Below are positions 1 through 27,053 of a stretch of DNA of 35,396 nucleotides, piece by piece; positions within the stretch are counted from its first letter, which is position 1; each line of letters begins with the position of its first letter. A model generated the notes under the pieces. The model did no database searches and was not told the origin of the DNA. It worked only from the letters and a program-made list of their open reading frames with translations. The stretch is from Clostridia bacterium (GTDB lineage Bacteria; Bacillota; Clostridia; UBA1381; UBA9506), in NCBI GenBank assembly GCA_017415145.1, contig JAFQJE010000003.1:1-35396 (forward strand), in the 5' to 3' direction. Position numbers and translations under genes: made by a program.

Positions 1-285
1 GAAGATTTAAGCTCAATGGAAGAATTTGCAAGATATCTTGGCATTGCATTTCAGATAAAAGATGATATTTTAGACGTTACAGGAAACGAAGAAACTCTCG
101 GCAAAAAAACCGGTGTAGACGGATTGTTGGAAAAATCAACATTTGTAAGCATTTATGGTATGGAGCAGTCCGAGAACCTTTTAAAGGATTACACTGACAA
201 GGCGATAGGAGTGTTGTCAAAATACGGTGATGAGGCAGAATTTTTAATAGAACTTTCAAAATTTTTGCTTTCCCGTGAGAATTAA
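1..285 (+). CDS. ispA: Polyprenyl (farnesyl/geranylgeranyl) diphosphate synthase, C-terminal part
   Basis: The 5' end lies outside the window; about 94 C-terminal residues remain, in frame from base 1. The fragment has the second aspartate-rich motif of trans-isoprenyl diphosphate synthases (FQIKDDILDVTG, around residues 18-29 of the fragment). It is followed by the conserved LGKKTGVDG and a lysine/threonine segment that help bind Mg2+-pyrophosphate. Members condense IPP with an allylic diphosphate in the cytosol to make C15-C20 chains. Which chain length is made cannot be told from this part, because the first DDxxD motif is missing. The location directly upstream of the large non-coding RNA and oapA matches the classical OLE locus, where ispA-type genes are common neighbours. 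Identification of the family is firm; the ispA symbol is by context. Confidence 0.9.
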   Translation, partial: EDLSSMEEFARYLGIAFQIKDDILDVTGNEETLGKKTGVDGLLEKSTFVSIYGMEQSENLLKDYTDKAIGVLSKYGDEAEFLIELSKFLLSREN

Positions 286-313: not shown

Positions 314-342
314 TTTACTATTTTTAAAAAATATGTTATATT
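314..342 (+). promoter_or_regulatory. Candidate promoter for the OLE RNA
   Basis: A TTTACT element at 314-319 lies 17 bp from TATATT at 337-342, with a TG one base upstream of the -10 (extended -10). The predicted start is near 349, some 35 nt before the complementary 5' end of the RNA. The region is very AT-rich, so chance matches are likely; I rate it as moderate. Confidence 0.45.
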
Positions 343-383
343 ATCGTTGATGTTAATACATTAAAAAAACAAGTTAATAAACT

Positions 384-1009
384 TAGGTGGTGCAGTATCC
401 TAGTCAGATCTGCTTGTTCCCAGGACGGACCTAAAAAGCCGTTAAAGGGCACATCGATGAAGTTTCTGGTGCTTGCTTTCGATGCCAGTCGGGGGTTGGT
501 GCTGGAAGTTAAGGTTTAGGGGCACATTGCAATGGCATGCAAACGATGACCCCTTTTCCGTGGAGACCTGTTATTGTGCTTTATCTGCTTTTCGAAAAAA
601 CATTTAAGAGGACTTACTAAGGTACGAAACAGGGTTAAACCTGTCACTCGGTGCGATTGTGAAATTTTCACATGAGCGCTGTGGGCAGCGTAGCCTGCCT
701 TGAGTGGTTATGGAGGATAGTTGATAAAACCATAATGCTTCGGCCAAAGTTTTATGGTTATTGCTTCTTGAAACCATAACTGCAAAAGAGGATAAGAGCA
801 AGTGTGACTGTTTGGGAAAACCTCTAGGCTGTTCTTTTGAGATGCCGCGGGGATTGTAGTGTGGATTTAAGTGGCGATTCGGTTCTGTATTGGGAAACCG
901 TACAGGATAGGCTTTAAAAGGAAACTGCTGATTTGGCGACATTTCAGTGGCTTATCGGGAAATCCTACCGGACCTAAACCGCAAAATTTACCCGTAGTAT
1001 TACCACCTA
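384..1009 (+). ncRNA. ole: OLE RNA (Ornate Large Extremophilic RNA)
   Basis: This 626-nt stretch has no plausible coding frame, is clearly richer in G+C than the flanking spacers and has abundant complementarity. Its ends pair (TAGGTGGT at 384-391 with ACCACCTA at 1002-1009). GGTTTAGG at 513-520 pairs over a long range with CCTAAACC at 973-980, and local hairpins include AACCATAA/TTATGGTT around 728-779. A T-rich run follows the 3' end. OLE RNAs are about 600 nt long, lie between isoprenoid genes such as ispA and the OapA membrane protein gene, and form a membrane-bound ribonucleoprotein with OapA and other proteins. They are linked to resistance to cold, ethanol and Mg2+ stress. Size, position and the downstream OapA-like gene all agree. 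Exact ends are inferred from the terminal pairing; processing from a longer transcript running into oapA is possible. Confidence 0.88.
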
Positions 1010-1048
1010 TTTTTTATTTTAATTTATTTAAAAAGGTTGGTGCTAAAA

Positions 1049-1627
1049 TTGTCTGACGATAGTAGGGACAAGCGAAGCGTAAACAAGAAAAAAGAAAAAG
1101 AAAAAAGAGGCCGTAGGTGGGTTGTTACCGTTATTCTTTTGACCTTTGTTATTTCATCCATACTTCAGATGATACAGGCGGGTCTTATGAGTAAGGTTAA
1201 TCTTGCCATGGCTTTTGTTATTTTAATAACCTTTGTTTTAATAGGTATTTTGTTTGATATTATTGGTGTTGCGGTGACTTCTGCAAATGAAACACCCTTT
1301 CATTCCTTGTCATCACAAAAAATCAGGGGTGCTAAGGAAGCAGTGAAATTAATAAGAAATGCTGACCGTGTAGGATCTTTTTGCAATGACGTTATTGGTG
1401 ATATTGTTGGTATTATTTCGGGAAGTGCTACAACAGTTATTGTTGCCATGATAATGTCATCTGGTATAAATATTACCAACTTCACACTTACTGTGGTTAT
1501 GACAGCACTTGTTGCAGCCCTTACCATTGGAGGTAAAGCAGCGGGGAAGAGACTTGCAATAGATAAATCAAACAGCATTGTATTTTTTGTGGGTAAGGTT
1601 ATAAGCTACATTGTACCTGTGAAATAA
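1049..1627 (+). CDS. oapA: OLE RNA-associated integral membrane protein OapA
   Basis: A small, very hydrophobic protein (about 192 residues) with a highly basic N-terminus and four predicted membrane helices: roughly RWVVTVILLTFVISSIL, AMAFVILITFVLIGILFDII, IVGIISGSATTVIVAMIM and FTLTVVMTALVAALTIGG. Between helices 2 and 3 lies the polar segment SANETPFHSLSSQKIRGAKEA, which resembles the conserved loop of OapA proteins. OapA binds OLE RNA and holds it at the cytoplasmic membrane; it has been linked to Mg2+ homeostasis. Start choice: there is no ATG. The frame opens at TTG 1037, but AAGG at 1033-1036 is too close for 1037 or GTG 1040, so TTG 1049 (spacing 12) fits best, if a little far. A TTG start and weak site suggest low expression or control by the RNA upstream (inference). 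Confidence 0.87.
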   Translation: MSDDSRDKRSVNKKKEKEKRGRRWVVTVILLTFVISSILQMIQAGLMSKVNLAMAFVILITFVLIGILFDIIGVAVTSANETPFHSLSSQKIRGAKEAVKLIRNADRVGSFCNDVIGDIVGIISGSATTVIVAMIMSSGINITNFTLTVVMTALVAALTIGGKAAGKRLAIDKSNSIVFFVGKVISYIVPVK

Positions 1628-1643: not shown

Positions 1644-2495
1644 ATGACTAAAACAGAAAACAAATCAAAGCTATTTGGTATAATAGGTACACCTGTGGAG
1701 CATTCATTGTCCCCTAAGATGCACGCTTTTATGGCAAAGAGTTTGGATATAGATATGTCTTATGAGCTATTTGATGTAAAGCCTGAAAAACTCCATACAA
1801 CTATGGAAAATTTCAAAAAAACGTCAGCTTGTGGATTTAATATAACAGCACCTCATAAAATCGAAATTATAAAAGAATTAGATGAAGTTTTAGATGATGC
1901 ACTTTGTATGAATTCAGTAAATACCATTGTAAACCGCAACGGCAAATGGACAGGCTATAACACAGATGGAGATGGATTTTGCATTTCGCTGCTTTTTGAA
2001 AACTGCGAAATAAAGGATAAAAATATATTAATTATTGGTGCAGGCGGTGCCGCAAGAGGTGTATGCTATAAATTGGCAGAGTATGGGGCTAAATCAATTT
2101 CGATAACTGCCAGAACTAAAGAAAAAATACATATTATCGGTGAGATGGTTAAAAAATATAGTGATGCCGAGTTTTATCCTGAAATTGATAAAACTAAAAA
2201 ATATGATATTATAATAAATACCACACCATTGGGAATGCATCCAAATGAAGATAAAAATCCTTGTGATTTTATGGATATTATAAATGAGAGCACAGTTTGC
2301 TGTGACCTTATATATAACCCGTGTAAAACAGTGTTTTTGAAAGAGTCCGAGAAGAAAAATGCAAAAATAATAAATGGTTTAGGCATGCTTGTTATGCAAG
2401 GGATATTAGCGTTTGAAAAATTTCATAATGTGCAGCTTGACCGAAAAAAATACTATGAAGAACTAAACTGCCTGTTGGCAGATTATAAAATCTGA
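1644..2495 (+). CDS. aroE: Shikimate 5-dehydrogenase
   Basis: Reduces 3-dehydroshikimate to shikimate with NADPH, fourth step of the shikimate pathway, in the cytosol. The 283-residue protein has the substrate-domain start GTPVEHSLSPKMHA (catalytic lysine region follows as ITAPHK), the NTDGDG segment, the Rossmann glycine-rich loop GAGGAARGV, NTTPLGMHP, and a C-terminal GLGMLVMQG. Length is normal for the family. The frame extends to GTG 1635, but AGGTG at 1632-1636 sits 7 nt before ATG 1644, which is the better start. It lies 16 nt after oapA with no terminator, so it may be read from the OLE/oapA transcript. The other aro genes of the window are 29 kb away at 30556-33629. Confidence 0.95.
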   Translation: MTKTENKSKLFGIIGTPVEHSLSPKMHAFMAKSLDIDMSYELFDVKPEKLHTTMENFKKTSACGFNITAPHKIEIIKELDEVLDDALCMNSVNTIVNRNGKWTGYNTDGDGFCISLLFENCEIKDKNILIIGAGGAARGVCYKLAEYGAKSISITARTKEKIHIIGEMVKKYSDAEFYPEIDKTKKYDIIINTTPLGMHPNEDKNPCDFMDIINESTVCCDLIYNPCKTVFLKESEKKNAKIINGLGMLVMQGILAFEKFHNVQLDRKKYYEELNCLLADYKI

Positions 2496-26791: not shown

Positions 26792-27053
26792 AAATGAATA
26801 ATTTCAAAGACTATGATGAAGCAAAGTAGCCCCGTAAACACCACAAAGAGAGAGTTTCTCGATGGGCTGAAAGGAAACTCGGTTAAGGCGTAAGGTGAAA
26901 TTTCACTTCGGAGTTCTGTACTTGAAACAACAGTAGAGTATGGCGATTAGTGCCCGTAAGGCACAAAAGAGTGCTTCTTTTAATGAGAAGAATTTGGGTG
27001 GTACCGCGGATTATTTTAGTTGTCCGTCCCTTGCGGGGCAGACAACTTTTTTT
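26792..27053 (+). promoter_or_regulatory. T-box riboswitch (Phe) upstream of pheS-pheT
   Basis: The leader has the AGAGAG loop with the following GATGGGCTGAAAGGAAACTC portion of Stem I, a likely specifier codon TTC at 26914-26916, and the highly conserved T-box TGGTACCGCG at 26999-27008. A terminator hairpin with a T-run follows. Uncharged tRNA-Phe would pair with the TTC specifier and, through its NCCA end, with the T-box bulge, favouring the antiterminator and expression of pheST. The specifier is chosen from the downstream genes and its position on the 3' side of Stem I; the T-box itself is beyond doubt. Confidence 0.95.
27018..27053 (+). terminator. T-box leader terminator
   Basis: Stem AGTTGTC (27018-27024) / GACAACT (27041-27047), an internal CG/CA mismatch, then TCCC/GGGG and loop TTGC, ending in seven T. 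It competes with the antiterminator formed around the T-box sequence. Confidence 0.9.

What the first reader, a model, noticed from the sequence alone, without database searches (positions are those of the whole stretch)
384..1009. OLE RNA with its OapA partner in a Clostridia genome
The 626-nt non-coding block between an ispA-type gene and a four-helix OapA-like gene has the size, place and paired ends of OLE RNA, one of the largest and most structured bacterial RNAs, whose molecular action is still unclear. Its presence next to ordinary fermentative and spore genes would add a host to a class best known from extremophiles and anaerobes. Seen: lack of ORF, complementarity, gene context. Known: OLE-OapA association. 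Inferred: identity.
Basis: partly seen in the sequence, partly recalled or inferred. Interest (0 to 1): 0.85.

Follow-up and report, generated by a model that had tools for sequence, protein, structure and literature searches.

The report
OLE RNA with OapA, gut-type Clostridia
The window carries a complete, ordinary copy of OLE RNA, a very large structured bacterial RNA of unknown biochemical action, next to the membrane protein that anchors it; the copy itself is no surprise in this bacterial order, but its relatives show species swapping the RNA for a magnesium transporter and, in a few lineages, keeping the membrane protein after losing the RNA.

Summary
Window 371-1022 (+) is a full-length OLE RNA (RF01071, 491.6 bits against a cut-off of 50, E 2e-141, model 1-616/616). 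The gene after it is OapA: DxxxD motif, four-helix CNNM-like fold, usual place. The conserved tertiary parts are there (A-rich L4, complementary L5/L6 loops, palindromic L9.3 GGCC, capped P13). The OapB gene lies elsewhere in the same genome; OapC cannot be judged, because its usual locus is not assembled. It is a new member of a well-described class: 51 of 101 relatives have OLE, and a published census lists 2,822 Bacillota genomes.

Two things found on the way deserve more. (1) Among the 101 relatives OLE and the Mg2+ transporter MpfA nearly exclude each other (7/51 against 45/50), with opposite states even inside single genera. (2) OapA occurs without detectable OLE: a reduced-genome genus has a separate OapA paralogue in all 37 genomes, 27 of them without OLE, and two other families keep xseA-xseB-ispA-oapA-dxs with OLE missing exactly between ispA and oapA. 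Published work calls OapA exclusive to OLE-bearing organisms, or nearly so.

The parts
1..285 (+). 3' end of ispA-type (farnesyl diphosphate synthase family) gene, cut by the contig start
   Evidence: PF00348 E 2e-15; NF045485 FPPsyn E 3e-25
314..342 (+). possible own promoter of the RNA (TTTACT-17-TATATT with TG)
   Evidence: consensus match only; 10 sites found in the region against 4.3 expected, so weak
371..1022 (+). OLE RNA gene (ole), full length
   Evidence: RF01071, 491.6 bits, model 1-616/616
386..392 (+). 5' strand of the terminal stem P1 (AGGUGGU)
   Evidence: pairs with 1002-1008 in MFE and centroid
430..438 (+). A-rich L4 loop (CCUAAAAAG), the A-A dimer contact of the cryo-EM structures
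   Evidence: UAAAAA invariant in 30 OLE sequences; role from PMC12286853 and PMC12265935
481..490 (+). L5 loop (GAUGCCAGUC), one base shorter than most relatives
   Evidence: GCCA remains complementary to UGGC of L6
529..540 (+). L6 loop (GCAAUGGCAUGC), kissing partner of L5
   Evidence: role from PMC12265935
737..749 (+). L9.3 loop with palindrome GGCC, symmetric kissing contact
   Evidence: role from PMC12286853
884..904 (+). P13 stem-loop with GAAA cap (OapB-binding region in H. halodurans)
   Evidence: kept here, lost in several members of family f4; region from PMC9723947
1002..1008 (+). 3' strand of the terminal stem (ACCACCU)
1049..1627 (+). oapA, TTG start, 192 aa; DxxxD at residues 114-118 (DVIGD), basic N-terminus
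   Evidence: 277 bits to the OapA profile; model pLDDT 88.8, best PDB matches CNNM MtCorB 7m1t/7m1u
1653..2495 (+). aroE (shikimate dehydrogenase), downstream neighbour; takes the place dxs has in most relatives
   Evidence: TIGR00507 254 bits; context table

Best explanation
This is a genuine ole-oapA unit. The locus is transcribed into an OLE RNA of about 630 nt that folds into the conserved architecture and probably dimerises through L4, L5/L6 and L9.3. It is held at the cell membrane by the OapA dimer encoded just downstream, with the OapB protein of the same genome (between map and infA) as a likely partner at P13. By analogy with Halalkalibacterium halodurans the particle works in stress and Mg2+ homeostasis; in this lineage it appears to fill a role that OLE-less sister species give to the Mg2+ transporter MpfA. 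Shown here: identity, full structure, conserved contact loops, OapA and OapB genes, and the OLE/MpfA exclusion pattern. Inferred: transcription, dimerisation, membrane location, Mg2+/stress role.
For: Covariance-model hit over the full model. The same RNA in 51 of 101 relatives and directly 5' of oapA in all 20 named OapA loci tested. Contact loops conserved in 30 relatives. OapA profile hit, DxxxD, CNNM fold. OapB orthologue in G000:C22, best PDB match 7k9b 'OLE-associated protein B' E 2e-11, between map and infA. OLE against MpfA: 7/51 and 45/50, Fisher p 1.5e-15; the MpfA proteins read have CNNM-CBS-CorC_HlyC architecture.
Against: No expression data. The genome is a draft (85% complete, 37 contigs), so the lack of MpfA and of OapC there is not proof. 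The perfect anti-Shine-Dalgarno mimic CCUCCU of the H. halodurans P6 stem is not present here (CCCCUUUUCC). The OLE/MpfA test is not corrected for phylogeny.
Confidence: 0.93

Rival explanations
1. A decayed or non-functional OLE copy that persists by chance.
For: One base is missing in L5 relative to most relatives.
Against: The hit covers the model end to end at 491.6 bits, well inside the range of the relatives' full-length copies. The L5 deletion is shared with G002 (same genus) and G098 (another family), and keeps the L5/L6 complementarity. OapA is intact.
Confidence: 0.02
2. The block codes for a protein (antisense ORF 604-942, or a short sense peptide).
For: A 112-aa antisense frame is open.
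Against: The covariance-model match explains the conservation; a similar antisense frame appears over the OLE of G005 because the RNA letters are conserved. No sense ORF of 80 aa or more lies within the block.
Confidence: 0.01
3. The RNA is real, but its role in this lineage is not Mg2+ or stress homeostasis: the OLE/MpfA exclusion reflects shared ancestry only.
For: Most of the pattern lies along a few genera, and the Fisher test ignores phylogeny.
Against: Three genera (g3, g4, g16) hold both states, and MpfA flips with OLE in each, G004 (both) being the one exception. The published census over all Bacillota finds the same anticorrelation (PMC11332333).
Confidence: 0.2

Closest known systems
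OLE RNA (RF01071) with OapA, as in Halalkalibacterium halodurans, Clostridium acetobutylicum and C. botulinum
   Same: Full-length secondary structure, L4/L5/L6/L9.3 contact loops, oapA directly 3', ispA 5', OapB encoded in the map-infA operon.
   Different: aroE follows oapA where most relatives have dxs; L5 one base short; longer variable loops in the P7 and P8 region; no CCUCCU in P6.
[quoted passage not shown]
   Same: Same RNA class in uncultured gut bacteria.
   Different: This copy is full length (491.6 bits, above the 390 that the paper, with its own model, used for 'full-length') and keeps the P13 cap.
MpfA/CorC/CNNM Mg2+ transporters
   Same: OapA shares the CNNM fold (PF01595 22.7 bits; MtCorB 7m1t/7m1u best in PDB).
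   Different: OapA has the DxxxD motif and no CBS or CorC_HlyC domains; MpfA occurs mostly in genomes that lack OLE.

Membership tests
OLE RNA (RF01071) | score above the gathering threshold over the full model | tested here: met
   491.6 bits against 50, model 1-616
OLE RNA (RF01071) | conserved dimer-contact loops L4, L5/L6, L9.3 | tested here: met
   UAAAAA in L4; GCCA/UGGC between L5 and L6; GGCC in L9.3
OLE RNA (RF01071) | oapA next to ole | tested here: met
   oapA 1049-1627; adjacency in all 20 named loci tested
OLE RNA (RF01071) | abundant stable transcript of about 630 nt at the membrane | not testable with these tools
   needs RNA-seq, Northern blot or localisation
OapA | DxxxD motif in a four-helix CNNM-like membrane protein | tested here: met
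   DVIGD at 114-118; model pLDDT 88.8, CNNM matches at ranks 1-6 (best E 3.8e-3, probability 1.00)
OapB | YbzG-type KOW protein encoded in the genome | tested here: met
   L052:1206-1472 between map and infA; PDB 7k9b E 2e-11
OapC (YbxF) | L7Ae-like protein between rpoC and rpsL | tested here: inconclusive
   Only YlxQ found in G000; rpsL, beside which the gene lies in relatives, was not found in the assembly; YbxF present in family members G005, G009, G011
bS21 site of OLE | CCUCCU anti-Shine-Dalgarno mimic in P6 (H. halodurans) | tested here: not met
   window reads CCCCUUUUCC in the 3' strand of P6; the mimic is described for H. halodurans, not as a class-defining feature

The most novel reading that the evidence does not exclude
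Not the window copy but its family: OapA works without OLE RNA in some bacteria. A separate OapA lineage (OapA2), found in every genome of a reduced-genome genus, and canonical oapA genes from whose locus OLE has been lost (xseA-xseB-ispA-oapA-dxs), keep the DxxxD core. OapA2 loses positive charge in the loop before the motif. OapA would then be a membrane (perhaps ion-handling) protein with an activity of its own, and OLE RNA a detachable regulatory partner, comparable to the CBS and CorC domains of MpfA.
Probability: 0.5. Interest if true: 0.65.

Novelty: new member of a known kind. Interest (0 to 1): 0.4.

Why it matters
The window copy adds one more host to an RNA class whose biochemical action is unknown. 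The related loci give natural experiments for that question: genera in which OLE and MpfA swap, one genome (G005) in which ole and oapA sit on different contigs, and lineages with OapA but no detectable OLE. These allow OapA's own activity to be separated from that of the RNA.

Tried and rejected
Single-sequence AlphaFold model of OapA: pLDDT 49.5, discarded. Generic KOW family search missed OapB (it found only L24 and NusG); synteny plus the PDB sequence match found it. Is MpfA inserted at the empty ole site? No in the six OLE-less family members read: their MpfA neighbours are unrelated genes such as glyS. A hidden OLE beside OapA2 was sought with permissive cmscan in 16 OLE-less loci: none, only weak L20-leader matches before infC. 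The antisense ORF 604-942 was rejected as a gene.

Full report
Observation. Rfam's OLE model (RF01071) hits window 371-1022 on the + strand with 491.6 bits (gathering score 50; E 1.8e-141), from model position 1 to 616, uncut. The strand folds better than all 20 dinucleotide shuffles (z -4.85), and the two ends pair (386-392 with 1002-1008). No sense ORF of 80 aa or more lies in the block.

Anatomy of the RNA. On an alignment of 30 OLE sequences from relatives the window keeps the parts that cryo-EM work (PMC12286853; PMC12265935) assigns to the RNA dimer. These are the A-rich L4 (UAAAAA, invariant), complementary L5 and L6 loops (GCCA against UGGC) and the palindrome GGCC in L9.3. L5 is one base shorter than usual; the same deletion is in G002 (same genus) and in G098 (another family), and the complementarity is kept. 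The sequence CCUCCU, which mimics the anti-Shine-Dalgarno in the H. halodurans P6 stem (PMC12054373), is not present.

Protein partners. The gene at 1049-1627 is OapA. It has DVIGD (DxxxD) at residues 114-118, it matches the OapA profile at 277 bits, and an alignment-based AlphaFold2 model (pLDDT 88.8) finds CNNM transporters as its first six PDB matches (MtCorB 7m1t/7m1u, then CorC 7cff/7cfg; best Foldseek E 3.8e-3, probability 1.00, so a weak but consistent fold match). That relation was already published (PMC11332333). OapB is encoded in the same genome between map and infA (L052:1206-1472); its best PDB match is 7k9b, OLE-associated protein B, E 2.2e-11. OapC cannot be judged: in relatives it lies between rpoC and rpsL, and rpsL was not found in this assembly, while family members G005, G009 and G011 have it there. 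The L7Ae-like protein found in this genome is YlxQ, beside nusA and infB.

Neighbourhood and distribution. OLE occurs in 51 of 101 relatives and oapA in 50. Two OLE genomes lack a detected oapA: in G002 the RNA lies at a contig edge, and G012 has only a partial OLE match near a contig end. In most relatives ispA or another gene precedes and dxs follows; in the window's family aroE or an LPG-synthase-like gene follows oapA. In G005 the ole gene and oapA lie on different contigs, each with its usual outer neighbours (ispA and a DUF212-like gene before ole; the LPG-synthase-like gene after oapA), so the pair can be unlinked. All 20 named OapA loci tested have OLE directly upstream. The class is well known: 2,822 Bacillota genomes in a published census (PMC11332333).

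OLE and MpfA. Using strong CNNM matches (five of these proteins read in full show CNNM-CBS-CorC_HlyC), 7 of 51 OLE genomes and 45 of 50 OLE-less genomes have MpfA (Fisher p 1.5e-15, not corrected for phylogeny). In the window's own family 13 of 14 OLE genomes (the window's own among them) lack MpfA and all 6 OLE-less ones have it. Genera g3, g4 and g16 contain both states, with G004 (both) the one exception. Of the MpfA genes read, none sits at the ole site. This agrees with the anticorrelation published for Bacillota (PMC11332333) and shows it at genus scale. The window's genome has no MpfA match, but it is only 85% complete.

OapA without OLE. Lyon et al. [quoted passage not shown] Two groups of genomes depart from this. 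First, genus g32 (37 genomes, 0.7-1.3 Mb): all 37 have an OapA-like protein but only 10 have OLE, and those 10 have two. The paralogue, here called OapA2, lies after nusB-xseA or proS and before infC-rpmI-rplT in most loci read, whether or not the genome has OLE. It forms its own clade (100/99) apart from the OLE-linked copies of the same genus (100/99), and it keeps DxxxD in 29 of 29 sequences. The loop before the motif (residues 80-112) has mean net charge +0.8 against +4.1 and +2.8 in OLE-linked OapA (p about 1e-4, related sequences not corrected for). Permissive cmscan of 16 OLE-less OapA2 loci finds no OLE, and G099 searched alone gives none at E up to 10. Second, G141 and G143, from two families, have xseA-xseB-ispA-oapA-dxs with only 34 and 92 bases between ispA and oapA; neither locus nor genome (stricter filters) has an OLE hit. 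Draft assemblies and search filters are the caveats. G099 also lacks a strong CNNM match.

Mechanism. Shown: identity, architecture, partner genes, exclusion pattern. From the literature: membrane binding through OapA, RNA dimer, stress and Mg2+ phenotypes in H. halodurans. Inferred: that this copy is expressed and does the same. The pattern fits the published idea that the OLE particle and MpfA do overlapping work; the OLE-free OapA proteins suggest that part of the activity resides in OapA itself. That last step is a hypothesis.

Verdict. The window finding is correct and is an ordinary member of a known class. The related loci are the more interesting outcome.

Noticed in passing
L034:2871-3470 (G099) and the OapA2 loci among L159-L198: An OapA paralogue (OapA2) with conserved DxxxD, found in all 37 genomes of genus g32, 27 of them without detectable OLE; it lies upstream of infC-rpmI-rplT in most loci read.
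   Followed up: yes
L190:1048-4232 (G141) and L191:65-3746 (G143): xseA-xseB-ispA-oapA-dxs with OLE absent between ispA and oapA (34 and 92 bases left); no OLE detected in either genome.
   Followed up: partly
101 relatives of the window genome: OLE and MpfA nearly exclude each other; genera g3, g4 and g16 contain both states.
   Followed up: partly
L206 (OLE, G005:C6) and L158 (OapA, G005:C21): ole and oapA are on different contigs in G005, each with its usual outer neighbours: the pair can be unlinked.
   Followed up: partly
window 26804-27034: T-box leader (RF00230, 102 bits) directly upstream of a pheS-pheT-like pair.
   Followed up: no
window 604-942 (-): Open antisense frame of 112 aa over the OLE RNA, with a similar one over the OLE of G005; a likely source of spurious gene calls.
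   Followed up: partly
L023, L025-L028, L030 (OLE of family f4): The P13 cap is shortened or lost in these OLE RNAs although the whole RNA still scores 436-455 bits; such loss was described for variant 1.
   Followed up: no
L171:3078-4871 (G110): The OLE-linked OapA of G110 is an open frame of 597 aa, far longer than the usual 190-270 aa; the extra C-terminal part was not examined.
   Followed up: no
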